Below are positions 7,346-20,080 of a stretch of DNA of 20,080 bases, one piece after another. Position numbers and translations under genes: made by a program. The notes under the pieces are model-generated. The model worked only from the letters and a program-made list of their open reading frames with translations, was not told where the DNA came from and did no database searches. Numbering within the stretch: the stretch's first letter is position 1; every line of letters starts with the position of its first letter. Source of the DNA: a virus; the IMG/VR virus record IMGVR_UViG_3300017771_000169, positions 1-20,080 of that record. One strand, 5' to 3'.

Positions 7346-7768
7346 ATGAATCAATGGCATCACGATATCAATGAAATGCACGCTAAATATGGTGTACATG
7401 ATTGGATTAAAGAAGAACTTAACCGCGAAGACAAAGATTGGTCACGGCTAAATAAGTTTTTACAATTTAGAATTAATTTTCTAAAAGAAGAATTGACCGA
7501 AACAGAAGATGCATTCAATAATAAAGATGCAGCAGAAGTTGTTGATGGTCTTATTGATTTGTGTGTTATTGCAATCGGTACACTCGATGCATTTAATGTT
7601 GACGCACAAAAAGCATGGGAAGAAGTGCACACTGCTAATATGATGAAAGAACGTGGTATTAAAGAATCTCGGCCAAATCCTCTCGGATTGCCAGATTTAA
7701 TTAAGCCACAAGATTGGGTTGGACCAAATCATGATGAAAACACCGGGAATATCAGCGACGCTCTTTAA
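7346..7768 (+). CDS. MazG-like / phosphoribosyl-ATP pyrophosphohydrolase-like protein
   Basis: An all-alpha NTP pyrophosphohydrolase-type protein of 140 residues. The magnesium-binding signature is visible: EExxE at 48-52 (KEELTETE) and ExxD at 64-67 (AEVVDGLID), followed by a helix and ANMMKERG. The C-terminal tail NPLGLPDLIKPQDWVGP is like that of cyanophage MazG-like proteins. Members hydrolyse (d)NTPs or related nucleotides to monophosphates. In a phage that makes modified precursors, a role in removing canonical dNTPs would make sense (inference; T4 uses gp56 for dCTP). The AEP-like gene begins before its stop codon. Confidence 0.85.
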   Translation: MNQWHHDINEMHAKYGVHDWIKEELNREDKDWSRLNKFLQFRINFLKEELTETEDAFNNKDAAEVVDGLIDLCVIAIGTLDAFNVDAQKAWEEVHTANMMKERGIKESRPNPLGLPDLIKPQDWVGPNHDENTGNISDAL

Positions 7769-8672: not shown

Positions 8673-8684
8673 ATGTGGTATAAT
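8656..8684 (+). promoter_or_regulatory. Early-type promoter for the modification region
   Basis: TGTACA at 8656-8661, a 17-bp spacer and TATAAT at 8679-8684 preceded by TGTGG, within the 3' end of the AEP-like gene. Transcription should begin near 8691, only about 3 nt before ATG 8694, so the transcript would be nearly leaderless. Confidence 0.78.
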
Positions 8685-8693: not shown

Positions 8694-9137
8694 ATGAAAG
8701 AATCAGTTAAAGTCCTACAAGAGTGTGCCGAACTTCAAGTGAAGAAAGGCAATGACTATCAAAACCCGCATTCGCGGATCAAGCAAGTTGATTATTACCC
8801 ACAAGGTGTTGCAACGTTGCTTGACATTGTACATGCTAAGATGCTTCGTATGCGATCAGTTATCGAAGCTATGCAATCAGATCCAAACTATAATCCTAAT
8901 TTCGAATCACTCGAAGATTCAGCAAAAGATATGATTAACTATTGTTCATTTATCGTTGAGTATTCTCGTGGTAAGATGCAAGGTCAAGATCCTAATAATG
9001 ATTTTTTAAATCGACCTAAAACTAAAGTACAATATACTGAACCTACAAAAGATGAAGTATATCCAGCAAGAGAAGATGTACCTGCTGAATTATGGGGTAA
9101 AAATATTAAGGAAGCTCTAGCAAATGATGAATGTTAA
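8694..9137 (+). CDS. Nmad1/DUF1599-like protein
   Basis: A 147-residue helical protein resembling the DUF1599 family, renamed nucleotide modification associated domain 1. Supporting patterns are KKGNDYQNPHSRIKQ, LLDIVHAKMLRM and FESLEDSAKDMINYCSF, that is, a K-x-x-DY motif, a conserved lysine helix and a D-x-x-NY helix. The fold is thought to be related to MazG-like pyrophosphohydrolases, and members co-occur with phage DNA modification genes. An upstream in-frame ATG at 8673 would add MWYNRCI, but that stretch is the -10 element itself, so 8694 is preferred. It overlaps the hydroxymethylase start by 14 nt. Confidence 0.6.
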   Translation: MKESVKVLQECAELQVKKGNDYQNPHSRIKQVDYYPQGVATLLDIVHAKMLRMRSVIEAMQSDPNYNPNFESLEDSAKDMINYCSFIVEYSRGKMQGQDPNNDFLNRPKTKVQYTEPTKDEVYPAREDVPAELWGKNIKEALANDEC

Positions 9138-9780
9138 AGACGTTAGAAATCATTTCATTGATGAATTAAAAAATGAAAGATTTACTATTGATAAAACAGG
9201 CCAAAAAACTATTGAAATGATTGGTGCTTCATTCATTGCAGATGATGAATCTATCTTCGGTCAACCAAATAAGGAATATATTAATGCAGAAATCGATTGG
9301 TATTTGTCTGGATCCACAAACATCAACGATATTTATGGAGACGATCGAGACCCTCCAAAAGCATGGCAGATGTCTGCAAATAAGTATGGAGAAATCAACT
9401 CAAACTATGGATACCTCGTATTTGACGATAAGTGGTATCGCCAATATGATAATGTCGTTAACGAATTAGCTGCAAATAAAGATTCGCGTAGAGCTTGTAT
9501 GGTCTATAATCGTCCATCAATTTGGGCTGAATTCGATGCAAATGGCAAGAATGATTTTATTTGTACAAATGCAGTTACATATTATGTTCGAAATGATATG
9601 CTGCATTCTGTTGTGCAGATGAGATCTAATGATGTAGTGTATGGCTATAAAAATGATTATGCATGGCAAAGCTATATGTTGCACTGTGTTGCAAATGACT
9701 TAGAAGTTGATCAAGGCACTATTACTTGGCAAGTTCAAAACCTACACGTTTATGAAAGGCATTTTGATCTTGTTAAATAA
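9124..9780 (+). CDS. 42: Deoxypyrimidine hydroxymethylase, gp42 type (probably dCMP)
   Basis: A thymidylate-synthase-fold enzyme that uses methylene-tetrahydrofolate to add hydroxymethyl to C5 of a deoxypyrimidine monophosphate. The product (218 residues; T4 gp42 has 246) tracks T4 gp42 closely: TIDKTGQKTIEMIGASF, GEINSNYG, DSRRACMVYNRPS, the nucleophile C147 in CTNAV, MRSNDVVYGYKNDYAW and NLHVYERHF. D178 falls at the position of T4 D179, which replaces the Asn of thymidylate synthase and selects cytosine, so dCMP is the predicted substrate. It is truncated after the RHF block relative to T4. The start overlaps the Nmad1-like gene, and dCMP deaminase overlaps its end. Confidence 0.9.
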   Translation: MMNVKDVRNHFIDELKNERFTIDKTGQKTIEMIGASFIADDESIFGQPNKEYINAEIDWYLSGSTNINDIYGDDRDPPKAWQMSANKYGEINSNYGYLVFDDKWYRQYDNVVNELAANKDSRRACMVYNRPSIWAEFDANGKNDFICTNAVTYYVRNDMLHSVVQMRSNDVVYGYKNDYAWQSYMLHCVANDLEVDQGTITWQVQNLHVYERHFDLVK

Positions 9781-10231
9781 ATGGGATACTCGATACCTTG
9801 AGCTTGCAGAGCGCGTAGCGTCGTGGTCGAAAGATCCATCGCGTCAGATTGGTGCTGTTGCAGTAGGATCTAAAGGACAAGTTCTTGCTCAAGGTTTTAA
9901 TGGTTTTCCCCGAGGAATTGTTGATACCGCAGATCGTTATAACAATCGCGAGATCAAATACAAATATGTTGTTCATGCAGAAATGAACGTCATATATAAT
10001 GCTACATATAACGGAGTTTCTTTAGACGGTTCTACGTTATATGTTTCTGGTTTGCCAGTTTGCTCTGACTGTGCAAAAGGTATAATTCAAGTCGGCATTT
10101 CAAGAGTTGTAATGAAAGAAGAAAATATCCCACAACATTGGGCAAAATCGTGGGCAATGACAGCTGGAATGTTTGACGAAGCAAATATTAATTGGGAGTT
10201 TATAAATGTCACAAGTTCAAGAACGTCATGA
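9752..10231 (+). CDS. dCMP deaminase
   Basis: Deaminates dCMP to dUMP, feeding thymidylate synthesis. The zinc site is clear: HAEMN (His ligand and catalytic Glu) and PVCSDC with two cysteine ligands, the proline immediately before the first Cys being replaced by Val. WDTRYLELAERVASWSKDPSRQIGAV and GFNGFPRG are the usual N-terminal landmarks. The start is uncertain: ATG 9752 is used here, but TTG 9764 or 9770 would match family length better and lie downstream of AAAGG (9755-9759). All overlap the end of the hydroxymethylase gene. Deaminases of T-even phages are reported to accept hydroxymethyl-dCMP, so the enzyme could also make hm-dUMP. It ends overlapping the next small gene by 26 nt. Confidence 0.92.
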   Translation: MKGILILLNKWDTRYLELAERVASWSKDPSRQIGAVAVGSKGQVLAQGFNGFPRGIVDTADRYNNREIKYKYVVHAEMNVIYNATYNGVSLDGSTLYVSGLPVCSDCAKGIIQVGISRVVMKEENIPQHWAKSWAMTAGMFDEANINWEFINVTSSRTS

Positions 10232-10415
10232 AGATTACATGAAGCGGCGTCTACGTGAAGAAAATATTGGTGTTAATACAGAATACACTAATATGAGACT
10301 TACAAAAGAAATTGAAGAACTTAAAGATAGAATTAAAACACTTGAAACTGATATGGCATACACAGCATATGCTACCAGCCCAGAAGAACAACGGATATAT
10401 GATTTAAAAAAATGA
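10206..10415 (+). CDS. Small coiled-coil protein
   Basis: A 69-residue highly charged protein without recognised family. Residues about 30-52 (RLTKEIEELKDRIKTLETDM) form a short predicted coiled coil with leucine/isoleucine heptad positions. The N-terminus is rich in Arg and Glu. GGGAG at about 10194-10198 precedes ATG 10206, and the end forms an ATGA overlap with the pyrophosphorylase-like gene. It may be an oligomerisation or adaptor partner of the neighbouring modification enzymes (inference from the coupling only). Confidence 0.7.
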   Translation: MSQVQERHEDYMKRRLREENIGVNTEYTNMRLTKEIEELKDRIKTLETDMAYTAYATSPEEQRIYDLKK

Positions 10416-11587
10416 GTTTAGAAACTACTGAATATTATGATGAATTTATTCGTTATTTTGATATGGCACAAGAACAACAAGTAAAGTGCAATGTTTCAGA
10501 AGAAGCTCCATATGGGATGATTCCCCATATGGAGTCTGGAATGAACGATGACTTAATGCATTGGATTGAATTATACGATGTTGTTGAGCGTAAATATGCT
10601 GGCTTCTCTCAAATTATGAATGATTGCTGGTCTGGTTGGACTGAAGATCATCCTTATTGGAAAAAGATGGAAGCTGGTTTACATTGTGATCAACGTAAAG
10701 TAGTAGCAGAAAATTGGACTGGTAAACATAAAGATTTTGATTTGCCAGAATGGCTATATCTTTTTATCTTACATCGTGTATGTGGTTCTGCTATTAATTA
10801 TGCAACTAAACCATCTGGTTATCATAATACATTATTATTTACACTTCATAAAGCTAAAACTATTGAAGACATGGTTTGGCATATGAAGAGGCATAAGACA
10901 CCATTTTATACTTCTGTTGGATACCAGTTTCCTAAATTTCCTAAACCACCACAAGGTTCAGATTATAAAAGAAGCGGTGATTACTACCTAGCAGAATTTG
11001 CTCCTCGTCTTGCAAGAGAGATGGCAGAGTGGCTACAAACTTCAAATGAAAGAAAAGATCTTCGAGAAATTGGAGAATATATGGGTAAATGGAATGAAAG
11101 AAACGGGCTTAATCGTTACACTTTTCAATATGCTGCCGTGGTTGCTGATATTGCAGATTGGTATCCTCAGTTTGTTAATAAAGAATCGCATTTTTATTAT
11201 GGTACTAACGCTGTTGAGTGCATTTCTTATCTTGCTAAACCAACCATAAAAATGAAAAAAGAAGTATTTCTCGACAAAGTTATGGATAAAATTTATGAAG
11301 ACACAAAATCATTTCCATATAATGCAGAAGATGTATGCTGTGACTTCATTCGTTGGGTAGAAAACTATATGAGACCAGGTGCACATTATTCACACGTAGA
11401 TATGGATACAGTATTTTCATCGAGCAAAATCAAAGATCATCCATTTGGTCGACAGAAGGCTATGCTCGAACTTGGTTTAGTTGATACATTTAATAATCGT
11501 AAACACCATCCATCAGATGATACAGTCTTAAAAGAAGTTAGTATGTCAATAGAGGAATACAAAGCTAAATGCGCCACGCTACATTAG
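10412..11587 (+). CDS. aGPT-pyrophosphorylase-like protein (DNA hypermodification)
   Basis: This 391-residue, mostly helical protein resembles the alpha-glutamyl/putrescinyl-thymine pyrophosphorylase families, which descend from HhH-type DNA glycosylases and act on pyrophosphorylated hydroxymethyl-pyrimidines in DNA. Supporting patterns are LYLFILHRVCGSAINYA (about 112-128), FRYTF-like and AADIADWYPQF-like helices, and a C-terminal DFIRWVENYMRPG...GRQKAMLELGL block. I know the family by pattern only, so the exact subgroup is uncertain. If correct, the enzyme would displace pyrophosphate from the activated base so that an amine or other group can be attached. It starts in an ATGA overlap with the coiled-coil gene, overlaps the next gene by 19 nt, and contains a perfect hairpin near its start. 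Confidence 0.55.
   Translation: MSLETTEYYDEFIRYFDMAQEQQVKCNVSEEAPYGMIPHMESGMNDDLMHWIELYDVVERKYAGFSQIMNDCWSGWTEDHPYWKKMEAGLHCDQRKVVAENWTGKHKDFDLPEWLYLFILHRVCGSAINYATKPSGYHNTLLFTLHKAKTIEDMVWHMKRHKTPFYTSVGYQFPKFPKPPQGSDYKRSGDYYLAEFAPRLAREMAEWLQTSNERKDLREIGEYMGKWNERNGLNRYTFQYAAVVADIADWYPQFVNKESHFYYGTNAVECISYLAKPTIKMKKEVFLDKVMDKIYEDTKSFPYNAEDVCCDFIRWVENYMRPGAHYSHVDMDTVFSSSKIKDHPFGRQKAMLELGLVDTFNNRKHHPSDDTVLKEVSMSIEEYKAKCATLH
10505..10533 (+). repeat. Perfect inverted repeat, 11-bp stem with 7-nt loop
   Basis: CTCCATATGGG (10505-10515) and CCCATATGGAG (10523-10533) are exact reverse complements around ATGATTC. It lies about 95 nt inside the pyrophosphorylase-like gene. There is no following T-run, so it is not an intrinsic terminator. 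It may be an mRNA hairpin that affects translation or processing, or a protein site (each arm contains the palindrome CCATATGG). Confidence 0.7.
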
Positions 11588-12555
11588 AAGCATTTATCGA
11601 ACAAGATAATAATTCTATTACATATAAAAATACAGTAGAACCTATATTAAAAAAAGGTAAAGTCACTAATCATCTATTAGAAAAGTGGCCGCTCGAAGAA
11701 AGAATACAAAAGTTCTTCGAGTTTTGTCGTGCGTATGATGTAAGAGAAGAACCTTTACTTAAATCTAATCCGCAACAATTTTCTCATCGATTGCATTGGG
11801 ATGAGATGCCATATGTAGAAGAAATGAAGAATGAAAAAGATGTAGAAAAACTTTTACATCATACTATTGTTTGGTCATTTAGTAACGAACATTGGTTGAC
11901 ATTTAGAGCATTAAGAGATCACGGTATTGAGGCCATGAAAAATAGATTTGTTACTGAGAGGCATGCAAGATCAGACTTATTTCAAATATATTATCCTAAA
12001 GGCACTAAAGTAAAAGAATGGCTATGTGAAACACCACAACGAATTGCCAAAGATTGTTATCCGCTTTTGCAGTCAAATCGCCCATTAAAAATGATGGAAC
12101 TAGCATCTAAACTTGAAAAACACACGAAAGAAAAATATGGATTTAGAAATGTTATGTACCCTTATAAGAACCTGTCTCGTCACATCGCCATGGCAAGACC
12201 AGATCTTGTCGATCCAGAATCGTGGGTTACACCAGGAACATTATCGTTCTATGGACTATGGCAAATATTTGGTGGAAAAAACCTCTTTGGTAAAACAAAA
12301 TTCAACTTAGATGAAAATGGTAACTATGAGCCAGTAAATGATCAAGCAAAATGGCTTGTAGAACAATTCAATACTTTAGCTGCGCATAAAGATAATCCTA
12401 TGCAACGGCAATATAATATCAACATCGAAGATAAAGCTTGTATGTGGTGTAAACATTTATTTATTAGACATGGTGTTAAATCTACTACAAAGAAAATTCC
12501 ATATGAATGGATTTATCCGCGTAATTTTTCTCTAAAAAAGAGTTTACATTCCTAA
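11569..12555 (+). CDS. Unknown protein in the modification cluster
   Basis: A 328-residue protein, largely helical, that I cannot assign. Visible features are aromatic-rich helices (VWSFSNEHWLTFRAL), a central segment with YPYKNLSRHIAMARPDLVDPESW, PGTLSFYGLWQIFGG at about 226-240, and CMWC near residue 285, which could bind metal or be structural. It overlaps the pyrophosphorylase-like gene by 19 nt, with AGAGGAA upstream as ribosome site, and is followed by the promoter for the PLP gene. The coupling suggests a partner in base modification, for example the enzyme that attaches an amino acid or amine to the activated base (inference). The start at ATG 11569 is well placed. Confidence 0.7.
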   Translation: MRHATLEAFIEQDNNSITYKNTVEPILKKGKVTNHLLEKWPLEERIQKFFEFCRAYDVREEPLLKSNPQQFSHRLHWDEMPYVEEMKNEKDVEKLLHHTIVWSFSNEHWLTFRALRDHGIEAMKNRFVTERHARSDLFQIYYPKGTKVKEWLCETPQRIAKDCYPLLQSNRPLKMMELASKLEKHTKEKYGFRNVMYPYKNLSRHIAMARPDLVDPESWVTPGTLSFYGLWQIFGGKNLFGKTKFNLDENGNYEPVNDQAKWLVEQFNTLAAHKDNPMQRQYNINIEDKACMWCKHLFIRHGVKSTTKKIPYEWIYPRNFSLKKSLHS

Positions 12556-12571
12556 TAAAATTTGGTATAAT
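12543..12571 (+). promoter_or_regulatory. Early-type promoter for the PLP-enzyme gene
   Basis: TTTACA at 12543-12548, a 17-bp spacer and TATAAT at 12566-12571 preceded by TTTGG. A start about 7 nt after the -10 would fall at 12578, the A of the start codon, so the transcript is predicted to be leaderless. No ribosome binding site is visible upstream of that ATG. Confidence 0.78.
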
Positions 12572-12577
12572 AGACCT

Positions 12578-13522
12578 ATGTCACACGATAAACATGTAAT
12601 TGATAATGTAAATAAAGACGTAGAAGTCTTAAGTCTTGATGGAATCCAAACTCGTCAAGAAGCAAAAGAATATTATCTAAAATTAGCTGATGGTTGGGAA
12701 GATCCTAATCCACAGCCAGTTATAAAGGAATATGATGGTGTACGAGTTGTTCGCGACGACCTCATTACAGGTAGTAAAGTACGAGGAGGAGATTTACTTA
12801 TTTCTCGTATTAATCAATCTCGTCTCGTTTATGTTCAGCCTCGCACTGGCTTGGCAGGAGTCTCGCTCTTGGATGTGGCAAAGAGACACAATAAAAGCGT
12901 TAGGCTATTCATGCCCTCATCGAAAAGAATTAGTCATCATCAAGCTTGTTGTATCGAGCGCGGTGCTGAGTATGATTTCTATCGTGTGGCTGCTATGCCT
13001 AACCTCAATAGGATAGCAAATAAATGGGCACAAGACAACGACGATGCGTTTTTTATCCCGTTAGGTTTAAAGCACGAACTCGTTACGGCAGGTATCGTAA
13101 AGGTAGCATCAGCAATTCCAGCACCAGAAGAAGTGTGGACCGTAGTATCTACAGGCGTACTACATCGCGCCTTGCAGATCGCTTGGCCAAAAGCTGAGTT
13201 TCATGCTGTTGCAGTTGCTCGTAATATGAAAGAAGGCGAAGTTGGTCATAGTAATATTATCTCTGCACCTGAGCCTTTTACTAAAGAAATTAAAGAAGGA
13301 CTGCCACCCTTCCCAAGTATAAACACATATGATGGAAAAGCATGGCGATATATCCCTAAAAATTCTGGTAGGGACATCTTATTTTGGAATGTTGGTGCTG
13401 AACCAGTACTAAACGATGATACTATATACGACAGAGTTGATTCATATAGAAAGTGGACTAAAGATGAAAAAAATACTACTCACGGGTCTGGGACCAATCT
13501 CGAACAAAATACATTCGCATAA
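12578..13522 (+). CDS. Fold-type II PLP-dependent enzyme
   Basis: The 314-residue protein looks like a tryptophan-synthase-beta/ACC-deaminase-fold PLP enzyme. After a 55-residue lead, VVRDDLITGSKVRGGDLL places K67 where the PLP-binding lysine sits in such enzymes. The helical repeats that follow (TGLAGVSLLDVAKRHNKSVRLFMP, then CCIERGAEYDFY) are the usual moving subdomain, and VVSTGVLHRALQIAWP with a later ILFWNVGAEP fits the phosphate-binding and closing region. Known phage pathways for 5-(2-aminoethoxy)methyl-uridine and 5-(2-aminoethyl)-uridine use PLP enzymes to process an amino acid attached to the base, so this is a likely step here; the reaction cannot be read from sequence. It has its own promoter and overlaps the next gene by 59 nt. 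Confidence 0.7.
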   Translation: MSHDKHVIDNVNKDVEVLSLDGIQTRQEAKEYYLKLADGWEDPNPQPVIKEYDGVRVVRDDLITGSKVRGGDLLISRINQSRLVYVQPRTGLAGVSLLDVAKRHNKSVRLFMPSSKRISHHQACCIERGAEYDFYRVAAMPNLNRIANKWAQDNDDAFFIPLGLKHELVTAGIVKVASAIPAPEEVWTVVSTGVLHRALQIAWPKAEFHAVAVARNMKEGEVGHSNIISAPEPFTKEIKEGLPPFPSINTYDGKAWRYIPKNSGRDILFWNVGAEPVLNDDTIYDRVDSYRKWTKDEKNTTHGSGTNLEQNTFA

Positions 13523-14525
13523 GGCAGCGCAAGCTATTATCTATGCTGATCAGCTCAAACAAGCTGGTATGGATGTGACAATCAATTTAGTCAGCAATAA
13601 AATTACTGATTATAGTCCATTCGAAGAAATTTATTTTTATCATGGATCAGATTGGAGTGGAAATCTAAATTTGTTTGGTGGTATTGAAGCATATGCTAAT
13701 ACTGATTTTGTTTCTGCCTTGTCACATTTCAATGGCAAAATTAAATCAATTATAGTTGACTTCCCCGATTATGCTTCTATGTTTCTCGATCGCTTAGCTA
13801 AAAAAGATATGACATGGAATACTGTACATTGGGAAAATCTACGTAAGTTACAAATAGAAGCTGAAACTGTTGATCCTAATATGATTAAGAGATATCGTAA
13901 GATTGCCTTTGGAGATAGTCATGCTATCTGCATGTACCGGCCCGGGTGGGAGAATGTATCAGTACCTTTCTCAACTTTACATGGTTCTATCAATAAAGGG
14001 TTTGAGACATTTGTACCAGAAAATGGCGAACCAATGAGAGAAGATAGATATGATGAAATCGAAACATATTTCGGTAATATTGATATTCGTCATCATCTTT
14101 GCAGATTTGATAATCCTATTGAAGAAGCGCATAAACTAGCTGATAGATATGGTAAAGAAATAGAACGTGTTCGCAAACTTTTTAAATCAAACGTCACTGC
14201 ATGGGAACCTCTACCAATTGAAGATGAAGCTCGTAAAATTCCAAAAACTGGATGGTATAAAGGTACACCATTTTACGGCAGCTGGCAACAACGAAATGAT
14301 GTGCGTAATGCTTTTACCGAAAGACTAAAATCTCATACACAAGTTTATGACTGGGTAGAATCACTATATAATCCTATAGGTCAACTAGGTTATGAGGCTA
14401 TGGAAAAGCCACAATCAGTGCATTTATCTCGAGCATCATATCCTCATTGGCAAGGAAAAAATTGGACTGCAGATACAGAATATCCAATTGAAGCTGCAGC
14501 TTCGCTTGAAGCATTCTTTGCATAA
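13464..14525 (+). CDS. SGNH-hydrolase-like protein of the modification cluster
   Basis: A 353-residue protein. Its N-terminus (MKKILLTGLGPI) looks like a Rossmann-type strand-loop, and the middle carries IAFGDSHA (a GDS block I-like motif with candidate serine nucleophile) and later YFGNIDIRHHLCR (a G-x-D/N-like block III), together suggesting an SGNH/GDSL-type fold. A C-terminal SRASYPHW might supply the Asp/His block, but this is not certain. Such proteins are esterases or acyltransferases; next to a PLP enzyme, transfer or removal of an acyl group on a modified base is one possibility. ATG 13464 is chosen over an upstream in-frame ATG at 13416 because MKKILLTG is a natural start. The 59-nt overlap with the PLP gene implies coupled expression. 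Confidence 0.5.
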   Translation: MKKILLTGLGPISNKIHSHKAAQAIIYADQLKQAGMDVTINLVSNKITDYSPFEEIYFYHGSDWSGNLNLFGGIEAYANTDFVSALSHFNGKIKSIIVDFPDYASMFLDRLAKKDMTWNTVHWENLRKLQIEAETVDPNMIKRYRKIAFGDSHAICMYRPGWENVSVPFSTLHGSINKGFETFVPENGEPMREDRYDEIETYFGNIDIRHHLCRFDNPIEEAHKLADRYGKEIERVRKLFKSNVTAWEPLPIEDEARKIPKTGWYKGTPFYGSWQQRNDVRNAFTERLKSHTQVYDWVESLYNPIGQLGYEAMEKPQSVHLSRASYPHWQGKNWTADTEYPIEAAASLEAFFA

Positions 14526-14530
14526 AACAG

Positions 14531-14559
14531 TGTACAAATAAGGAAAAATGTGGTATAAT
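14531..14559 (+). promoter_or_regulatory. Early-type promoter upstream of uvsX
   Basis: TGTACA at 14531-14536, a 17-bp spacer and TATAAT at 14554-14559 preceded by TGTGG. The predicted start near 14566 lies inside the first codons of the small gene that begins at 14548 or 14560, so the transcript probably serves uvsX (ATG 14752) rather than that gene. Confidence 0.78.
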
Positions 14560-14739
14560 ATGCCTTACAATAAAAAATTCGATCTAACGCCGAAAGAATT
14601 AGATTTAATCGAAATTGCACTAATAGCATATAGTACAAAGAACGTAAAATCTAAAAAAGAGATACAAAAATTACTAGCAAAATTTCATCATCAAAAACTT
14701 TGGTATCGACCAAAAGATGAAACATATATCAGTGGATAG
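14548..14739 (+). CDS. Small protein upstream of UvsX
   Basis: A 63-residue protein (59 if ATG 14560 is used). The pattern KFDLTPKELDLIEIAL, then KKEIQKLLAKFHHQKLWYRP and a final YISG looks like small helical proteins that accompany uvsX in marine T4-like phages, but I know no function. AGGA at 14541-14544 is close to ATG 14548 (3-nt spacing). Both possible ATGs overlap the promoter -10, so the gene would have to be read from a transcript that begins further upstream. It ends 12 nt before uvsX, with AGGAG between them. Confidence 0.65.
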   Translation: MWYNMPYNKKFDLTPKELDLIEIALIAYSTKNVKSKKEIQKLLAKFHHQKLWYRPKDETYISG

Positions 14740-14751
14740 CAGGAGAAATAT

Positions 14752-15795
14752 ATGAGTATTATGGATAAACTTAAAAAGAATAGTAAAATTAAAGAGTCTG
14801 ATGTGCTCTCTGATTCTAAGTTCTTTAATGAAAAAGATATGGTAGCAACAGATGTTCCAATGATGAATGTTGCGCTATCTGGTTCTATTGATGGAGGATT
14901 GGCACCAGGACTAACTGTATTAGCAGGTCCATCGAAACACTTTAAAACTTCTTTTGCTCTTATTATGGCATCAGCATATATGAAAAAATATCCTGATGCA
15001 GTAATGCTATTCTATGATTCAGAATTTGGTTCACCTCAATCTTATTTCGAACAGTTCAAAATTGATACAAGTCGTGTATTGCATACACCAATTGCAAACG
15101 TAGAAGAACTGAAATTTGATTTGATTGGTCAACTTGAAGGTGTAGAACGTGGCGATAAAGTCATTGTTGTTATTGATTCTGTTGGTAATTTGGCATCGAA
15201 GAAAGAATTAGAAGATGCTATCAATGAGAAATCAGTAGCAGATATGTCACGAGCTAAATCACTTAAGGGTTTATTCCGTATGACTACTCCATATCTGAAT
15301 ATGAAAGATATTCCTTTGATTGCTGTTAATCATACGTACATGGAGATTGGTCTATTCCCTAAAGCTGTAGTCTCTGGTGGTACTGGAATCTATTACTCTG
15401 CTGATAATATCTGGATCTTAGGTCGTCAGCAGGACAAAGTTGGTACAGAAATTAAAGGCTATCACTTTGTCATTAATGTGGAGAAGTCAAGATATGTTAA
15501 AGAAAAGTCTAAAATTCCTATTTCTGTTAGCTGGGACGGTGGCGTTCAGTCCTATAGTGGTCTTTTGGATGTTGCTATGTCTGGTAATTACGTTGCTAAG
15601 CCCTCTAATGGTTGGTATTGTAGGGTCGACCGTAGTACTGGAGAGTTGGTGGACCCAAAAGTTCGAGAAAAAGATACACTCACAGAGGAATTCTGGACCC
15701 CGATACTAGAAGAAACTGATTTTAAAGATTTTGTCAAAGAAAAATTTATGATTGGCGGTAAGGAAGACAATGAGCTTGATTTACAGGAAGCATAA
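14752..15795 (+). CDS. uvsX: RecA-like recombinase UvsX
   Basis: The strand-exchange protein of T4-type recombination-dependent replication and repair. The 347-residue product (T4: 391) has the UvsX-type Walker A GPSKHFKT at 59-66, Walker B VIVVID at about 137-142, and the preceding strand MLFYDSEFGSP with the candidate catalytic Glu at 91. VNHTYMEIG and GGTGIYYSADNIWIL are the loop and strand regions typical of UvsX. The C-terminus is shorter than in T4. A clear AGGAG precedes the ATG. It overlaps the next gene by 26 nt. Confidence 0.96.
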   Translation: MSIMDKLKKNSKIKESDVLSDSKFFNEKDMVATDVPMMNVALSGSIDGGLAPGLTVLAGPSKHFKTSFALIMASAYMKKYPDAVMLFYDSEFGSPQSYFEQFKIDTSRVLHTPIANVEELKFDLIGQLEGVERGDKVIVVIDSVGNLASKKELEDAINEKSVADMSRAKSLKGLFRMTTPYLNMKDIPLIAVNHTYMEIGLFPKAVVSGGTGIYYSADNIWILGRQQDKVGTEIKGYHFVINVEKSRYVKEKSKIPISVSWDGGVQSYSGLLDVAMSGNYVAKPSNGWYCRVDRSTGELVDPKVREKDTLTEEFWTPILEETDFKDFVKEKFMIGGKEDNELDLQEA

Positions 15796-16090
15796 AGAAA
15801 ACGAAACTTATCAACTTATTCCTGGTCCAGATTTTGCACAGAATTGGCATATTAGAATATTAGAAGGTAATTTCGTAGAAACTGTTATTGAAGTTGGAAC
15901 AATTTCTTATAATGAAACTAATGATGATGTATTGACCTTTAATTTTGAAATTGTAGAAACTCCAGATAATTCTTTAACAATAGAAAATATTGAATTACAA
16001 ATTACAGTTGGAGAAATTTTAGAGGAAATTATTACTGCAGCAATTGAGAATGATGATGGTAGTATTCAAATGAAAGAGAAAGAAACTTAA
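15770..16090 (+). CDS. Small acidic protein after UvsX
   Basis: A 106-residue protein without recognised family. It is rich in beta-like segments (FVETVIEVGTISY, LTFNFEIVETP, IENIELQITVG), followed by an acidic helix (EILEEIITAAIENDDG). ATG 15770 is preferred over the in-frame ATG 15752 because AAGGAAG lies about 6 nt ahead. It starts inside uvsX and ends in a TAATG overlap with the kinase gene. A role with UvsX or in modification is possible but only by position. Confidence 0.7.
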   Translation: MSLIYRKHKENETYQLIPGPDFAQNWHIRILEGNFVETVIEVGTISYNETNDDVLTFNFEIVETPDNSLTIENIELQITVGEILEEIITAAIENDDGSIQMKEKET

Positions 16091-16512
16091 TGAAGATTTT
16101 AATTTGTGGACTACCAGGTAGTGGCAAGACTACTCTAGCAGAACCATTGGCAGAATTACTTGGTGCAGTATGGATCAATGCCGATCAAGTAAGAAAACGG
16201 TATGATGACTGGGACTTTACACCTGAAGGTCGTATTCGTCAAGCACAACGTATGCGGCATCTATCAGATGGTGTTGTTATGGCAGGTAAAGTTGCTGTAA
16301 CAGATTTTGTAGCACCTACAGAAAAAGCTCGTGCAGAATTTGATGCTGATTATGTCGTGTGGATGGATACGATTGAAGAAGGACGTTTTGAGGATACAAA
16401 CAAAATGTTTGAAAAGCCAACAGATGTTAATTATCATGTTGCAAATTGGTTTGAAGATACTCATGCTCAATTGCTGCCAATTATTAAAAATTATATGGAA
16501 AGGAATAAGTAA
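16090..16512 (+). CDS. Small P-loop kinase, hydroxymethyl-pyrimidine DNA kinase-like
   Basis: A 140-residue P-loop kinase of the APS-kinase/nucleoside-kinase group. Walker A is GLPGSGKTT at 7-15, INADQVRKRYDDW at about 29-41 corresponds to the substrate-binding DxxR region, and WMDTI with RFEDTNKMF lies toward the C-terminus. Its size and this DTN-x-x-F pattern resemble phage kinases that phosphorylate 5-hydroxymethyl-uracil in DNA, the first activation step for hypermodified thymines. A kinase for another small substrate (adenylylsulfate, a nucleoside, RNA ends) is the alternative. ATG 16090 overlaps the preceding stop. It is separated from the modification island by the uvsX segment. Confidence 0.7.
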   Translation: MKILICGLPGSGKTTLAEPLAELLGAVWINADQVRKRYDDWDFTPEGRIRQAQRMRHLSDGVVMAGKVAVTDFVAPTEKARAEFDADYVVWMDTIEEGRFEDTNKMFEKPTDVNYHVANWFEDTHAQLLPIIKNYMERNK

Positions 16513-16733
16513 TGGAACTTTTACTTTTACTTGCAGCTGGAGCTGCAGCTCATCAATATCTAAAAGAACCTGATATTGCAATCCCACCGTCAGAGCATAA
16601 AGTGATGGTACAAAATGAACAAGTATGGATTCCTGATGATAACAGTCTAGCTATGATTGATTGGACAAAGGCAGGTAATTTTACTCAGACCTCTCATCAA
16701 CATAATGTAGTATGGGTGATGATCAGTGAGTAA
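16512..16733 (+). CDS. Small protein with hydrophobic N-terminus
   Basis: A 73-residue protein. Residues 1-13 (MELLLLLAAGAAA) are hydrophobic but carry no basic residue before them, so this is a weak signal peptide or anchor candidate. The remainder is polar, with PPSEHKVMVQNEQVWIPDD and a His/Gln-rich segment (TSHQHNVVW). ATG 16512 overlaps the kinase stop (TAATG), and the next gene starts within its last codons at a GTG. No family is recognised. Confidence 0.6.
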   Translation: MELLLLLAAGAAAHQYLKEPDIAIPPSEHKVMVQNEQVWIPDDNSLAMIDWTKAGNFTQTSHQHNVVWVMISE

Positions 16734-17145
16734 ATTTGACCCATTAAATCCTACTGTACAAATGCTTGGTAGGTGGCAACCTTGGCATGATGGCCATTCA
16801 GAATTATTTAAACGATGCCATGCTATGACAGGCCAAGTTGCTATTATGATTCGTCAAGTACCAGAGAAACGTGAAGCAAATTCTCGAGTTCCTGGTCAAG
16901 ATGATAATCCATTTAATATTGAAACAGTCAAAGAAAATATTATTACTGGACTTGCGCAAGAAGGGTTTACAATTGATGAAGACTATGTTATAATGGTAGT
17001 TCCAAATTTAGTTGACATTAGTTATGGTCGTGGTGTTGGCTACACATTTACAGAGCACGATCTTGGTAAAGCGATTCACGACATCTCTGCTACCAAGATT
17101 CGAGAACAAATGAGAGACGAAGGTAAACTTGCAGACAAATCTTGA
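16726..17145 (+). CDS. Nucleotidyltransferase (NMN adenylyltransferase-like)
   Basis: A 139-residue cytidylyltransferase-fold protein. HDGH at 21-24, after the strand LGRWQPW, matches the (H/T)xGH phosphate-binding motif, and ISATKIREQM near the C-terminus matches the ISxTxxR motif. Together these define the nucleotidylyltransferase superfamily. NMN adenylyltransferase (NAD synthesis) is the most likely member, since several large T4-like phages carry NAD salvage genes, but transfer of another nucleotide is possible. The start is GTG 16726, inside the previous gene. A promoter-like element lies within it, and gp41 begins 17 nt before its stop. Confidence 0.8.
   Translation: MSKFDPLNPTVQMLGRWQPWHDGHSELFKRCHAMTGQVAIMIRQVPEKREANSRVPGQDDNPFNIETVKENIITGLAQEGFTIDEDYVIMVVPNLVDISYGRGVGYTFTEHDLGKAIHDISATKIREQMRDEGKLADKS
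16966..16994 (+). promoter_or_regulatory. Intragenic early-type promoter ahead of gp41 helicase
   Basis: TTTACA at 16966-16971, a 17-bp spacer and TATAAT at 16989-16994 preceded by ATGT (extended -10 TG-T-TATAAT). It lies inside the nucleotidyltransferase gene, about 130 nt before the gp41 start. The upstream GG of the other copies is missing, hence lower confidence. Confidence 0.5.
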
Positions 17146-18505
17146 ACAGACAATCCTACGTAATCTTTTAACAGACGAGCAATATATGCGTAAAGTATTG
17201 CCGTTTATTAAACCAGATTATTTTGAAGGTGTCTATCGTATATTATTTAAAGAGGCTGGTAAGTTTGTTGGAAAATACAACAAGCTGCCAACTGCTGAAT
17301 CTTTTAAAATTGAATTAGATCAAGCTGATCGATTGACTGGTGAACAATACACCATGGCAGTTGATATTTTGCCTAATTTATTTTCACAAGAAAAGATCGA
17401 TGATCAATGGTTAATTGATACCACAGAAAAATGGTGTCAAGATCGTGCAATCTATAATGCAGTAATGGAATCAATTACAATCATAGATGGTAAACACGAA
17501 TCATTGACAAAAGGTGCTTTACCAGATTTGCTAAGTAAAGCCCTTGGTGTAGCATTTGATACTAACGTTGGTCATGACTATGTAGAGAATGCAGAACAAC
17601 GATTCGAATTTTACCATAAAGAAGAAGATAGGATTCCATTTGATCTCGAATATTTTAACAAGATTACAAAAGGTGGTGTACCGAGTAAAACACTTAACAT
17701 TGCCCTTGCAGGTACTGGCGTTGGCAAGTCTCTATTCATGTGTCATGTTGCTAGTGGTGCTCTTGTAGAAGGTCGTAATGTTTTATACATTACAATGGAA
17801 ATGGCTGAAGAACGTATCGCTGAACGTATTGATGCTAATCTATTGAATACACCTATTGATCAATTGCCGAATTTATCGAAAGATATGTTTACAACAAAAG
17901 TTCAAGATCTTGCTCGTAAGACCACAGGCAAATTAATTGTAAAAGAATATCCTACTGGTTCTGCACACTCTGGTCATTTTCGTGCATTATTAAATGAACT
18001 TAAACTCAAAAAAGAATTTGTGCCTGATATTATTTTTATTGATTATCTTAATATCTGTGCATCATCTCGTATGAAGGCAATGGGAGGATCGATTAATTCA
18101 TACACTTACATTAAAGCAATTGCTGAAGAGTTACGTGGTCTTGCGGTCGAGTTCGACGTACCGATCTTCTCTGCAACGCAAACGACTCGTAGTGGTTATG
18201 GTAACTCGGATGTTGGGCTTGAAGATACGTCCGAGTCTTTTGGATTACCCGCTACAGCAGATCTAATGTTTGCTCTTATCTCAACCGAAGAGTTAGAGAA
18301 GCAAGGTCAAATGATGGTTAAACAATTAAAGAATCGTTATAATGATCCTACAGCATATAAAAGATTTGTCATTGGTGTAGATAGATCAAAGATGAGGTTA
18401 TTTGATGTTGATGAGAATGAACAAACATTAACAGATGATACACCAGTTTTTGATAAAAGTGAAACACACGAAAATATGTCAAAGTTTAAGGACTTTAAAC
18501 TATAA
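17129..18505 (+). CDS. 41: Replicative DNA helicase gp41 (DnaB-type)
   Basis: The 5'-3' hexameric helicase that unwinds the fork and works with primase. The 458-residue product (T4: 475) aligns along its length with T4 gp41: NVGHDYVENAEQRF, IPFDLEYFNKITKGG, Walker A AGTGVGKS at 194-201, YITMEMAEERIAERID, Walker B IIFIDY at about 301-306, YTYIKAIAEELRGLAVE and the SFGLPATADLMFALI block. The start is TTG 17129, with GAAGGT just upstream, inside the nucleotidyltransferase gene. Its stop overlaps the ATG of the next gene (TAATG). A 7-bp inverted repeat at 18204-18236 lies within it. Confidence 0.97.
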   Translation: MQTNLEQTILRNLLTDEQYMRKVLPFIKPDYFEGVYRILFKEAGKFVGKYNKLPTAESFKIELDQADRLTGEQYTMAVDILPNLFSQEKIDDQWLIDTTEKWCQDRAIYNAVMESITIIDGKHESLTKGALPDLLSKALGVAFDTNVGHDYVENAEQRFEFYHKEEDRIPFDLEYFNKITKGGVPSKTLNIALAGTGVGKSLFMCHVASGALVEGRNVLYITMEMAEERIAERIDANLLNTPIDQLPNLSKDMFTTKVQDLARKTTGKLIVKEYPTGSAHSGHFRALLNELKLKKEFVPDIIFIDYLNICASSRMKAMGGSINSYTYIKAIAEELRGLAVEFDVPIFSATQTTRSGYGNSDVGLEDTSESFGLPATADLMFALISTEELEKQGQMMVKQLKNRYNDPTAYKRFVIGVDRSKMRLFDVDENEQTLTDDTPVFDKSETHENMSKFKDFKL

Positions 18506-19167
18506 TGAAAGCTATAGCTTTTAGTGGTGGTATGGATTCGACCATTATGGCATATGAATTATTCACCACTACTCAGGATAATTACTATATATTTACTATT
18601 GAAGATGAGCATTGGCCAATGAATTGGGCTTTTAACAATGTCAATTTTATTATGAATAAATGGTTTAGTAATTTTAAAGATAGAATTATTGATCATAAAA
18701 TAGTATTGAATGCTCGAGGTTATGGTAACAAATATTCACTTTATGCAGAATACTTGCAATGGGCAAAGGCAATATTAAAATATGATTTAACTCATTTATA
18801 TTCGGGCACTACAAAATTATATCCAGGATTAGAAGAAACAGAAGAATATAAAGGTTATGCTGAAGGTGCGCGAGTAGAATTCAAAGAGGCATTTGGAAAA
18901 TGTTATTTTCATCAACCATATTTTAATTTTTATAGGCATCAAGTAGCAAATAAATATATTGAATATAATGTTGTTGATATGATATTAGATACTCAGACAT
19001 GTAAAAGTATTGCACTCGATGGCAAATTGTGCAATAAGTCAAATTGTGAAGATTGTTCTGATAGGCACGAAGGATTAAAACGAGCATTCACTAATACAAA
19101 ATACGAATATATAATAGAGAGAGATAGAAATCGTAAATTGAAAGATGTAGTATGGACAAAATGTTAG
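18505..19167 (+). CDS. QueC-like PP-loop enzyme (7-cyano-7-deazaguanine synthase family)
   Basis: An N-type ATP pyrophosphatase of 220 residues. The PP-loop SGGMDST is at 7-13, and a C-terminal zinc site has cysteines at 166, 176, 181 and 184 followed by RHEGLKRAF, like the C-x-x-C...R-x-x-G-F end of QueC. QueC converts 7-carboxy-7-deazaguanine to preQ0 using ATP and ammonia; in phages, preQ0 can be inserted into DNA or used for tRNA. The middle is divergent from bacterial QueC, so another amidation or adenylation reaction is possible. No QueD, QueE, FolE or DNA-insertion enzyme is in this window. It starts in a TAATG overlap with gp41 and overlaps the methyltransferase by 16 nt. Confidence 0.7.
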   Translation: MKAIAFSGGMDSTIMAYELFTTTQDNYYIFTIEDEHWPMNWAFNNVNFIMNKWFSNFKDRIIDHKIVLNARGYGNKYSLYAEYLQWAKAILKYDLTHLYSGTTKLYPGLEETEEYKGYAEGARVEFKEAFGKCYFHQPYFNFYRHQVANKYIEYNVVDMILDTQTCKSIALDGKLCNKSNCEDCSDRHEGLKRAFTNTKYEYIIERDRNRKLKDVVWTKC

Positions 19168-19688
19168 GTACCACTGGAAGAGAAAAGTTTCCAGATTATG
19201 AACAATCGAGACGAAGCGTTCTAGATCGTTTAATTAAAGAAAACAATTTAGAATTTGGCGCTGAACTTGGTGTTCAATCTGGATATTTATTTTTCCATCT
19301 TTTAGATACACATCCTAATCTTATTCTTTTTGGTGTTGATGCATGGCTTGGCAATAATCAAACAGCATATGCTAAGATGAAAAAAGAAGTAAATGAAAAA
19401 GTGGCTAATTATAAAAATGGTATGATTATGAATATGACTACTAATGAAGCTGCAGAAAAAACACCAGATGATTCTCTTGATTTTGTTTTTATTGATGCTG
19501 ATCACTCATATCCTTCTTGTAAAATTGATATGCAAAAATGGTTGCCAAAAGTAAAGGTCGGCGGATATATCATTGGTCATGATTATAAGGTAAAACCAGT
19601 AAAAAAAGCTATTGAAGAAGTATTCGGAAAAAAAGGATATAAAACAGATGTTGATCAAGTGTGGTATGTAAAGAAAGTAAAGGCATGA
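19152..19688 (+). CDS. SAM-dependent methyltransferase (class I)
   Basis: A 178-residue class I methyltransferase resembling the Methyltransf_24 group. Motif I is GAELGVQSGYL at about 36-46, an acidic strand end FGVDAW near 60-65, the post-motif DFVFIDADHSY near 119-129, and IIGHDY at the start of the following strand. There is no DPPY or NPPY, so it is not a typical DNA adenine or cytosine-N4 methylase; sugars, small molecules or proteins are more usual substrates. It overlaps the QueC-like gene by 16 nt and is followed by a small gene in an ATGA overlap. Confidence 0.8.
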   Translation: MDKMLGTTGREKFPDYEQSRRSVLDRLIKENNLEFGAELGVQSGYLFFHLLDTHPNLILFGVDAWLGNNQTAYAKMKKEVNEKVANYKNGMIMNMTTNEAAEKTPDDSLDFVFIDADHSYPSCKIDMQKWLPKVKVGGYIIGHDYKVKPVKKAIEEVFGKKGYKTDVDQVWYVKKVKA

Positions 19689-19900
19689 TGAAAGAAATTA
19701 GTACTCATTGGGGATCTGATGAATATAAAGATAGAGAATCGATTATTTACCATGACACAAAAAAAGAAGTGTACGTAGTAGAATTTTGGCAAGATCAAAA
19801 TCTAGTTGAAAGCCGAGATATGGTAGATGATGGAGTGAAGAAAAGTATGAGATATGCTGAACGTGCAGCTGAAAATTGGGTATTAGGATACATAGCATGA
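19685..19900 (+). CDS. Small hypothetical protein
   Basis: A 71-residue soluble protein starting at ATG 19685, whose last bases overlap the TGA of the methyltransferase (ATGA). Beta-like segments (ESIIYHDTKKEVYVVEFWQD) are followed by a helical C-terminus (MRYAERAAENWVLGY). No family is recognised. A longer frame opens at 19661 within the methyltransferase, but the coupled start is preferred. It ends in an ATGA overlap with ThyX, so it is probably co-translated with it. Confidence 0.65.
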   Translation: MMKEISTHWGSDEYKDRESIIYHDTKKEVYVVEFWQDQNLVESRDMVDDGVKKSMRYAERAAENWVLGYIA

Positions 19901-20080
19901 CTGCAAGACTTATTAGTTATAGTAAACCACCGGAGGATTTATATGTTGGTAACGACATCCAAGAACTTATTGCGTATACAGCCCGTGTCTCGAATCCCTC
20001 GAACCAAGATAACACCGAAACCTCAGAAAAATTATTACGATATCTCATTAGAGAAAAACACTGGTCGCCATTTGAAATGG
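19897..20080 (+). CDS. thyX: Flavin-dependent thymidylate synthase ThyX (5' part)
   Basis: The frame opens at ATG 19897 and runs off the window end with 61 codons read. ARVSNPSNQ and HWSPFEM are the N-terminal landmarks of ThyX, the FAD enzyme that methylates dUMP to dTMP using methylene-tetrahydrofolate and NADPH. The signature RHR-x7-S and the rest of the protein lie beyond the window. With dCMP deaminase upstream it would provide dTMP. Its presence implies that the phage still makes ordinary thymidylate, which bears on what the hydroxymethylase replaces. Confidence 0.9.
   Translation, partial: MTARLISYSKPPEDLYVGNDIQELIAYTARVSNPSNQDNTETSEKLLRYLIREKHWSPFEM

What the first reader, a model, noticed from the sequence alone, without database searches (positions are those of the whole stretch)
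8694..16512. Candidate DNA hypermodification island built on a gp42-type hydroxymethylase
Within about 8 kb lie an Nmad1-like protein, a hydroxymethylase, dCMP deaminase, an aGPT-pyrophosphorylase-like protein, an unknown partner, a fold-type II PLP enzyme, an SGNH-like protein and a small kinase resembling hydroxymethyl-pyrimidine DNA kinases. Kinase, pyrophosphorylase and PLP enzyme are the steps known from hypermodified-thymine phages (phages ViI, M6, phiW-14, SP10). The SGNH-like protein and the protein at 11569-12555 do not fit a pathway I know, so the final modification may be new.
Basis: partly seen in the sequence, partly recalled or inferred. Interest (0 to 1): 0.85.

Follow-up and report, generated by a model that had tools for sequence, protein, structure and literature searches.

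The report
Cytosine DNA hypermodification genes in phage
Where phage T4 keeps the gene that coats its DNA with sugar, this T4-like virus carries a set of genes that probably puts an amino acid on the cytosines of its DNA, by a kind of route so far known on thymine, and relatives of its central gene are common in environmental virus sequence.

Summary
(1) The hydroxymethylase is a dCMP enzyme (T4 gp42 type; Cys148 and Asp179 in 67 of 67 sequences, 44 distinct), so the target is hydroxymethylcytosine (hmC), not hmU. (2) The 391- and 328-aa unknowns have no convincing match in Pfam, PHROGs, NCBIfam or PDB sequences. Their AlphaFold models best resemble the phage PaMx11 DNA glycinyltransferase and HhH DNA glycosylases: a probable pair of amino acid:DNA transferases. 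(3) The small kinase probably does not belong: it is half of a split kinase-nucleotidyltransferase and lies within 7.5 kb in 4 of 39 loci. The 'SGNH-like' protein has a T4 beta-glucosyltransferase-like N-terminus; its SGNH half rests on motifs. The module fills the T4 b-gt slot and is conserved (328-aa 49, PLP 48, SGNH 49 of 55 loci). A pattern scan of IMG/VR confirmed 571 stretches with relatives of the 391-aa protein; none was found in 50,697 phage records. Best reading: hmC in DNA receives an amino acid that the PLP enzyme makes or processes. What activates hmC, and the final base, are open. New variant of a known kind.

The parts
7346..7768 (+). MazG/PRA-PH-like nucleotide pyrophosphohydrolase; possible dCTPase (role inferred)
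   Evidence: Pfam PRA-PH 3.6e-11; family on 17 of 21 well-flanked loci
8694..9137 (+). Nmad1/DUF1599-like small protein (ORF opens at 8673)
   Evidence: Pfam DUF1599 0.026 and DUF6987 2.3e-4, both under cut-off; phrog_1485 3.8e-12; upstream of the 391-aa gene in 33 of 44 loci
9124..9780 (+). dCMP 5-hydroxymethylase (gp42 type), makes hm-dCMP
   Evidence: T4 enzyme 1b49 E 9.1e-65, best thymidylate synthase chain 3.8e-14; Cys148 and Asp179 in 67 of 67 sequences, 44 of them distinct
9707..10231 (+). dCMP deaminase (ORF opens at TTG 9707; true start probably further in)
   Evidence: Pfam 2.2e-19, phrog_174 4.4e-44
10206..10415 (+). small ORF, seen in few relatives; role unknown
   Evidence: its family lies within 8 kb in 16 of 130 loci
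10412..11587 (+). 391-aa probable amino acid:DNA transferase (aGPT/ADDT-type fold), core of the module
   Evidence: AF2 pLDDT 86.6; BFVD 'Amino acid:DNA transferase' 3.9e-40; PDB second look: PUGT 8z2n Z 9.6 at rank 1
11569..12555 (+). 328-aa second probable amino acid:DNA transferase, probably a paralogue of the 391-aa protein
   Evidence: AF2 pLDDT 86.7; BFVD 'Amino acid:DNA transferase' 8.4e-28; PUGT 8z2n Z 9.8 at rank 1; its HMM finds the 391-aa family at best 1.1e-4, best reversed decoy 0.05
12578..13522 (+). fold-type II PLP enzyme
   Evidence: phrog_7093 2.8e-39; 13 of 13 PDB profile hits at E <= 1 are cysteine synthase or cystathionine beta-synthase, best 0.0083; Lys67 invariant in 23 rows
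13464..14525 (+). protein with T4 beta-glucosyltransferase-like N-terminal region and SGNH-motif C-terminal half (ORF opens at 13416)
   Evidence: hhalign to BGT prob 91.7, E 7.7e-7 over residues 21-129; 5 of 28 members match Pfam T4-Gluco-transf, best 0.0015; GDSH, GNID and SVH motifs
14752..15795 (+). uvsX recombinase: downstream border of the module, as in T4
   Evidence: Pfam UvsX C-terminal 2.1e-13; T4 order 42, b-gt, segA, uvsX
16090..16512 (+). P-loop kinase half of a split kinase-nucleotidyltransferase; probably NOT part of the pathway
   Evidence: phrog_10255 positions 2-116, 3.1e-34; within 7.5 kb in 4 of 39 loci
16726..17145 (+). nucleotidyltransferase half of the same unit; probably NOT part of the pathway
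   Evidence: phrog_10255 positions 124-228, 3.7e-15

Best explanation
The island at 9124-14525 is an hmC hypermodification module that occupies the beta-glucosyltransferase slot of a T4-like phage. Step 1 (enzyme class shown by sequence, activity inferred): gp42 makes hm-dCMP, helped by dCMP deaminase and perhaps a MazG-like dCTPase; the phage polymerase puts hmC into DNA. Step 2 (inferred from fold): the two transferase-fold proteins, 391 and 328 aa, attach an amino acid to the 5-methylene carbon of cytosine in DNA, as PaMx11 PUGT is named for doing on phosphomethyl-U. Step 3 (inferred): the fold-type II PLP enzyme makes or processes that amino acid. Step 4 (inferred): the protein with a beta-glucosyltransferase-like head and an SGNH-like half acts on hmC in DNA, either activating the hydroxyl for step 2 or trimming or acylating the product. 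The kinase at 16090 is not needed. The purpose, by analogy with T4, is protection from host nucleases.
For: Position: T4 order 42, b-gt, segA, uvsX against gp42, module, uvsX here. gp42 specificity. Transferase fold of both unknowns: PUGT is rank 1 for each model, followed mostly by HhH DNA glycosylases; the top BFVD relatives are named amino acid:DNA transferase, and weaker rows (E 0.05 to 0.4) are named aGPT pyrophosphorylase or 5-hmdU DNA kinase (helical domain), including SP10 and PhiW-14 proteins. Likely paralogy of the two. Linkage: of 55 distinct loci with at least 4.5 kb downstream, 328-aa 49, PLP 48, SGNH 49; of 44 with at least 4.5 kb upstream, gp42 35, Nmad 33, deaminase 28. All 8 large IMG/VR records with the 391-aa gene that were tested hold a thymidylate-synthase-family gene (two of them, G003 and G007, look near-identical). 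BGT-like N-terminus. A PLP-like relative lies beside ParB-domain genes and is itself annotated DNA modification methylase in Microcystis phage Mae-JY30.
Against: No sequence-level match to Pfam ADDT. Foldseek alone against the PDB gives nothing for the 328-aa model (best E 0.76); the PUGT matches come from the VIA second look at Z 9.6-9.8, and the tool warns that helical folds can reach such values without kinship. The BFVD names come from UniProt tables, not from experiments seen here. Paralogy is not firm: the 391-aa HMM finds the 328-aa family only at 0.21 and hhalign gives probability 7.6. Six of 55 loci have the 391- and 328-aa pair without PLP or SGNH within 4.5 kb. SGNH assignment has no profile support. 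No activating enzyme is proven, and one module-bearing record (G006) has an AAA_33 kinase over the cut-off that I could not identify.
Confidence: 0.6

Rival explanations
1. The SGNH-like protein replaces the kinase: it acylates the hydroxyl of hmC in DNA, and the ester is the leaving group for the amino acid transferase.
For: SGNH is the steadiest partner of the 391-aa gene (20 of 21 loci with 6 kb on both sides), also in two loci without PLP (L045, L049), while the kinase is in 4 of 21. Aeromonas phage 44RR fuses this protein to a C-terminal part matching HMUDK_hel (9.4e-4), the helical domain named after the 5-hmdU DNA kinase.
Against: Phage 25 has the SGNH protein near a UDP-galactopyranose mutase (5e-54) and shows no HMUDK_hel match at E <= 10. 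The 49-kb record of L047, which has only the 391- and 328-aa genes, shows no SGNH. An ester is a poor leaving group (chemical judgement). The 44RR match is under the Pfam cut-off and has no support against the module proteins.
Confidence: 0.22
2. The SGNH-like protein is a tailoring enzyme (acyltransferase or esterase) that acts on the finished base, whether that base carries an amino acid or a sugar.
For: It occurs with transferase-fold proteins here and near a UDP-galactopyranose mutase in phage 25. Both 44RR and phage 25 also carry a gp42-type gene.
Against: It leaves the activation step unassigned.
Confidence: 0.4
3. Kinase route as in ViI or M6, but on hmC: the 16090 kinase, or another phage kinase, phosphorylates hmC in DNA.
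For: A P-loop kinase is near, and known routes use a 5hmdU DNA kinase (PMC6449724, passages). One module-bearing record, G006, has an unidentified AAA_33 kinase over the cut-off. Kinase families other than AAA_33, HMUDK_hel and phrog_10255 were not searched.
Against: The 16090 kinase is half of a kinase-nucleotidyltransferase, lies beyond uvsX, is within 7.5 kb in 4 of 39 loci, and its family is found in 2 of 14 records with the 391-aa gene.
Confidence: 0.08
4. The 391- and 328-aa proteins are base-excising DNA glycosylases (repair or attack on host DNA), not transferases.
For: HhH DNA glycosylases fill most of the other leading rows of the structural lists.
Against: PUGT stands first for both; linkage to gp42 and PLP fits synthesis better than excision.
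Confidence: 0.13
5. The target is thymine (hmU).
For: The kinase-and-transferase type of phage hypermodification is known to me only on hmU (recalled; PMC6449724, passages).
Against: gp42 Asp179 in 67 of 67 sequences; Asn to Asp at this site switches the preference from dUMP to dCMP (PMC8670742, passages).
Confidence: 0.05

Closest known systems
Thymine hypermodification pathways of phages ViI, M6, PhiW-14, SP10 and PaMx11 (5-hmdU DNA kinase, amino acid:DNA transferase, PLP enzyme; details recalled)
   Same: Hydroxymethyl-pyrimidine in DNA, aGPT/ADDT-type transferases by fold, PLP enzyme; some relatives add a radical SAM gene (L005:13814-15109)
   Different: Cytosine, not uracil; no conserved kinase found; transferases outside the Pfam ADDT profile; extra BGT-headed SGNH-like protein; T4-like replication locus
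T4 hmC glucosylation (gp42 plus beta-glucosyltransferase)
   Same: gp42, locus, BGT-like N-terminal region
   Different: C-terminal half does not align to BGT; amino acid type enzymes instead
5-carbamoyloxymethyl-C of environmental phages (MetaGPA study, PMC8670742)
   Same: hmC from an Asp177-type enzyme; thymidylate-synthase-family, dCMP deaminase and PRA-PH genes co-occur; then a reaction on the hydroxyl
   Different: Carbamoyltransferase there; none recognised here
5-carboxymethyl-C and its glycine amide (CmoX/CmoY, phage S-B43, PMC12783734)
   Same: An amino acid ends up on cytosine in phage DNA
   Different: Made by a Cx-SAM methyltransferase homologue and an ATP-dependent amide ligase, not by gp42 and a glycosylase-fold transferase
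Aeromonas phages 44RR, 31 and 25 (gene 42 present, no glucosyltransferase homologues; PMC2993671, passages)
   Same: Same SGNH family (43 phage records in all, duplicates of GenBank and RefSeq included); 44RR and phage 31 fuse it to a C-terminal part with a weak HMUDK_hel match (44RR tested)
   Different: No 391- or 328-aa gene found by tblastn at E <= 0.01; phage 25 has a UDP-galactopyranose mutase nearby instead

Membership tests
T4-type dCMP hydroxymethylase | Best match to the T4 enzyme, with catalytic Cys148 and dCMP-selecting Asp179 | tested here: met
   9.1e-65; 67 of 67 sequences for both residues; 44 distinct
Amino acid:DNA transferase (aGPT pyrophosphorylase / ADDT / PUGT) | Match to the Pfam ADDT profile | tested here: not met
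   no match in the window at E <= 10; ADDT also not among the families
Amino acid:DNA transferase (aGPT pyrophosphorylase / ADDT / PUGT) | HhH-glycosylase-like fold closest to PUGT | tested here: met
   rank 1 for both at Z 9.8 and 9.6 (next 7.7 and, after a second PUGT entry, 8.2); caveat: Foldseek alone finds nothing for the 328-aa model and Z under 13 is not proof for helical folds
Amino acid:DNA transferase (aGPT pyrophosphorylase / ADDT / PUGT) | Amino acid transfer to an activated hydroxymethyl-pyrimidine in DNA | not testable with these tools
   needs an assay
hmU-based thymine hypermodification system | dUMP-type hydroxymethylase | tested here: not met
   Asp at position 179 in 67 of 67 sequences
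hmU-based thymine hypermodification system | Dedicated hydroxymethyl-pyrimidine DNA kinase linked to the module | tested here: not met
   HMUDK_hel gives no match at E <= 1 in 14 of 14 IMG/VR records with the 391-aa gene. Other kinase families were not searched, and G006 has an unidentified AAA_33 kinase
T4 beta-glucosyltransferase | N-terminal domain | tested here: met
   prob 91.7; BGT HMM best 3.6e-4, best reversed decoy 0.026; 20 of 101 family ORFs score at or under 0.026, and the best domain lies in the N-terminal part in 77 of 77 hits
T4 beta-glucosyltransferase | C-terminal UDP-glucose domain | tested here: not met
   E 0.41 for the C-terminal half
SGNH hydrolase / acyltransferase | Ordered blocks GDSx, G, GxND, DxxH | tested here: inconclusive
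   GDSH, G190, G220, D223 and His336 conserved; the Asp of DxxH is not; motif definitions recalled
SGNH hydrolase / acyltransferase | Profile match to a Pfam or PDB member | tested here: not met
   0 hits at E <= 10; no SGNH family among the hits
Fold-type II PLP enzyme | Catalytic Lys and profile match to a fold-II enzyme | tested here: met
   Lys67 invariant; phrog_7093; 13 of 13 PDB hits at E <= 1 are fold-II enzymes, best 0.0083, so weak at PDB level; no Pfam or NCBIfam PLP match
Nmad1 (DUF1599) | Score above the Pfam cut-off | tested here: not met
   15.3 bits against a cut-off of 25

The most novel reading that the evidence does not exclude
A kinase-free route grafts an amino acid onto cytosine in viral DNA: a BGT-headed SGNH enzyme flips out hmC and turns its hydroxyl into an acyl leaving group, two new families of glycosylase-fold transferases put an amino acid on the methylene carbon, and a PLP enzyme (in some relatives with a radical SAM enzyme) finishes a base not yet described.
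Probability: 0.2. Interest if true: 0.88.

Novelty: new variant of a known kind. Interest (0 to 1): 0.7.

Why it matters
It would move kinase-and-transferase-like amino acid hypermodification from thymine to cytosine in T4-like phages, name two protein families that no profile library scanned here matches, and suggest what some T4 relatives that keep gene 42 but lack known glucosyltransferases do to their hmC, a question PMC2993671 (passages) raises for RB69, JS98 and Aeromonas phages 44RR, 31 and 25. New modifying enzymes could also serve to label hmC.

Tried and rejected
Sequence searches of the 391- and 328-aa proteins in INPHARED phages, Pfam, PHROGs (6; 28 for the 391-aa family only), NCBIfam, PDB sequences and the Pfam ADDT profile (51) gave nothing usable; one 328-aa member hit Agd3_CE at 7.7e-4, a single row of 26, set aside as chance. 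Foldseek against the PDB for the 328-aa model gave no match; it was not run for the 391-aa model. The 44RR C-terminal part was compared with both transferase families by hhalign and HMM: no support, so its link rests on HMUDK_hel at 9.4e-4, 4.1e-4 and 2.1e-4, all under the cut-off, and a weak BFVD row for the phage 31 protein (44, rank 26, E 2.7). The SGNH half alone found no PDB or Pfam SGNH family. Kinases in large records: AAA_33 passes its cut-off in 3 of 16 records; the 44RR one is pseT, polynucleotide kinase; the one in G006 (273-aa frame) showed no blastp match to the two Aeromonas ones at 1e-5 and stays unidentified. I considered that the whole SGNH protein is a glucosyltransferase and rejected it because its C-terminal half does not align to BGT (125). 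Controls: PLP against BGT (124, no match) and reversed decoys: at E <= 10 the BGT HMM also drew 31 decoys and 14 ORFs of other families, all worse than the best SGNH rows; the 328-aa HMM drew 28 decoys at E <= 1, and only 9 of its 63 hits in the 391-aa family beat the best decoy. In counting neighbours I collapsed 130 loci to 101 distinct 391-aa sequences and dropped loci with short flanks, as stated; contigs can be related, so counts are not independent events. Papers: PMC12783734 abstract, introduction and one results section; PMC8670742, PMC2993671, PMC6449724, PMC8056088, PMC11550810 passages; PMC5977210 searched for terms, no passage found; others search listings only. The Lee 2018 and 2022 and Iyer 2013 papers are not held; what I say of ViI, M6 and aGPT chemistry beyond the passages is recalled. 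The statement that I found no report of the module rests on searches of an open-access library only.

Full report
What is there. The window is a 20,080-base IMG/VR record from a T4-like phage: gp44, DNA polymerase, UvsX and gp41 are on the + strand. Between gp42 (9124-9780) and uvsX (14752-15795) lie a dCMP deaminase, a small ORF, a 391-aa protein, a 328-aa protein, a PLP enzyme, the SGNH-like protein and one more small ORF. In T4 the same interval holds b-gt and a homing endonuclease. So the island fills the slot of the beta-glucosyltransferase.

The base. gp42 matches T4 dCMP hydroxymethylase at 9.1e-65; the best thymidylate synthase chain is at 3.8e-14. Position 179 of T4, an Asp in the dCMP enzyme, is Asp in 67 of 67 family sequences of at least 190 aa, and Cys148 is Cys in 67 of 67; 44 of these sequences are distinct. 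The MetaGPA paper reports that Asn to Asp at the matching site switches the preference from dUMP to dCMP (PMC8670742, passages). The target is therefore cytosine. A MazG/PRA-PH-like gene at 7346-7768, whose family is on 17 of 21 well-flanked loci, may lower dCTP; that is inference.

The two unknown proteins. Neither has a convincing match in Pfam, PHROGs, NCBIfam or PDB sequences. AlphaFold models from 30 and 26 sequences have mean pLDDT 86.6 and 86.7. In BFVD their nearest relatives are named amino acid:DNA transferase (3.9e-40 and 8.4e-28); weaker rows, E 0.05 to 0.4, include aGPT pyrophosphorylase clade 1 (328-aa model) and the SP10 and PhiW-14 proteins named for the 5-hmdU DNA kinase or its helical domain. 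In the VIA second look at the PDB the PaMx11 glycinyltransferase PUGT is first for both (328 aa: Z 9.8, 225 residues, 4.0 A; 391 aa: Z 9.6, 208 residues, 4.0 A), followed mostly by HhH DNA glycosylases and the queuine salvage family DUF2419. Against this, Foldseek itself gives no PDB match for the 328-aa model and Z near 10 is not proof for a helical fold. The two are probably paralogues: an HMM of the 328-aa family finds 63 of 130 members of the 391-aa family at E <= 1, best 1.1e-4, with the best reversed decoy at 0.05; 9 of the 63 beat that decoy. The opposite search gives only 0.21 and hhalign probability 7.6, though with a colinear stretch.

The PLP enzyme matches phrog_7093 (2.8e-39). Its profile finds only cysteine synthase and cystathionine beta-synthase chains in the PDB (13 of 13 at E <= 1, best 0.0083), and one Lys, in a GSK or GTK motif in most rows, is invariant in 23 rows.

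The SGNH-like protein. Residues 21-129 align with T4 beta-glucosyltransferase (hhalign probability 91.7, E 7.7e-7); 5 of 28 members hit the Pfam T4-Gluco-transf model, best 0.0015. A BGT HMM run over 2,513 ORFs and their reversed copies gives 77 of 101 members of this family at E <= 10, best 3.6e-4, against a best decoy of 0.026 and a best other family of 1.2; 20 of 101 score at or under 0.026, 56 against 4 decoys at E <= 1, and the best domain is N-terminal in 77 of 77. The C-terminal half does not align to BGT. It carries GDSH, GNID and a late invariant His, which fit SGNH blocks from memory, but the Asp of DxxH is not kept and profile searches found no SGNH relative. I therefore call it SGNH-like only. 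In cultured phages the family is found in 43 records. In 44RR-type phages it is fused to a C-terminal part that weakly matches HMUDK_hel; in phage 25 one gene separates it from a UDP-galactopyranose mutase. 44RR and phage 25 each have a gp42-type gene besides a normal thymidylate synthase, and a review says that they lack glucosyltransferase homologues (PMC2993671, passages).

The kinase. The 16090 protein is a P-loop kinase that aligns to positions 2-116 of phrog_10255; the protein at 16726 aligns to positions 124-228 of the same family. In Stenotrophomonas phages DLP6 and Bhz60 the matching gene is long enough for both halves (244 and 247 codons), beside a NADAR-domain gene in Bhz60. This looks like a NadR-like unit (name recalled). 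The kinase family is within 7.5 kb downstream of the 391-aa gene in 4 of 39 loci, and phrog_10255 occurs in 2 of 14 IMG/VR records with that gene. One of those 14, G006, has another kinase of the AAA_33 family that I could not identify.

Linkage. From 130 loci, 101 distinct 391-aa sequences remain. Of 55 with at least 4.5 kb downstream, 49 have the 328-aa gene, 48 PLP and 49 SGNH; of 44 with at least 4.5 kb upstream, 35 have gp42, 33 Nmad and 28 the deaminase, all on one strand. The order of PLP and SGNH can be swapped (L086, L141). Smaller versions exist: 391-aa plus SGNH with gp42 and Nmad (L045, L049), and the 391- and 328-aa pair alone in six loci. GTDB genome contigs gave 5 loci, all titled MAG.

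Reading. Shown by computation: a conserved, gp42-linked module at the b-gt locus with two proteins whose predicted fold is nearest to a DNA glycinyltransferase, a fold-II PLP enzyme and a BGT-headed protein. Inferred: an amino acid is placed on the methylene of cytosine and processed. Open: what activates hmC, which amino acid, and the order of steps. The SGNH-like protein is the best candidate for the missing activation because it is the steadiest partner, but its presence near a sugar gene in phage 25 fits a tailoring role at least as well.

Novelty. Amino acids on thymine by kinase and transferase (recalled), and glycine amide on carboxymethylcytosine by a ligase (PMC12783734), are known. 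I found no report of transferase-type modification built on gp42-made hmC in the ten paper searches listed under Tried and rejected; the library is open-access only.

Noticed in passing
window 16090-17145: Kinase and nucleotidyltransferase match two halves of one PHROG (phrog_10255), split here by a small ORF (16512-16733); the longer form stands beside a NADAR gene in Stenotrophomonas phage Bhz60. Possibly NAD or nucleotide metabolism.
   Followed up: partly
L007:2661-3086 and 43 other family members: A UDG-superfamily-like gene (Pfam UDG 0.0011, under cut-off) just upstream of the 391-aa gene in many relatives; not seen in the window.
   Followed up: partly
L005:13814-15112 and relatives: A radical SAM/SPASM gene inserted between the SGNH gene and uvsX in some close relatives; could be an extra tailoring step.
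   Followed up: partly
L102:13119-14321, L026, L113: A C5-cytosine methylase-like gene directly after the SGNH gene in another group of relatives.
   Followed up: no
L181:4776-8047 (Aeromonas phage 25): UDP-galactopyranose mutase, an unknown 358-aa protein and the SGNH protein in a row, annotated hypothetical: a possible furanose modification of hmC.
   Followed up: partly
L174:2326-4764 and L175:4384-6702: PLP-like relatives in Erythrobacter and Microcystis phages, inside a gene annotated DNA methyltransferase or next to ParB-domain genes.
   Followed up: no
window 18505-19167 and 19152-19688: A QueC-like protein (Pfam 0.0016, under cut-off) and a SAM methyltransferase (Pfam Methyltransf_24 4e-14; phrog_2675 'DNA methyltransferase' 8.6e-17), which could also bear on DNA or nucleotide modification.
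   Followed up: no
window 19876-20079: ORF cut by the window end that looks like the start of ThyX (from memory, not tested).
   Followed up: no
L180 (WTIT01000131.1): A distant relative (34% identity) of the 391-aa protein on a contig binned as a Euryarchaeota MAG; perhaps an archaeal virus.
   Followed up: no
L149 (record G006 of L077, 68080-68469): An AAA_33 kinase over the Pfam cut-off in a module-bearing record, not matching the Aeromonas polynucleotide kinases by blastp; identity open.
   Followed up: partly
G004 (record of L141), 128584-129582: The SGNH profile match shows two TAA codons inside the aligned stretch; assembly error, broken gene or alignment run-on not settled.
   Followed up: no
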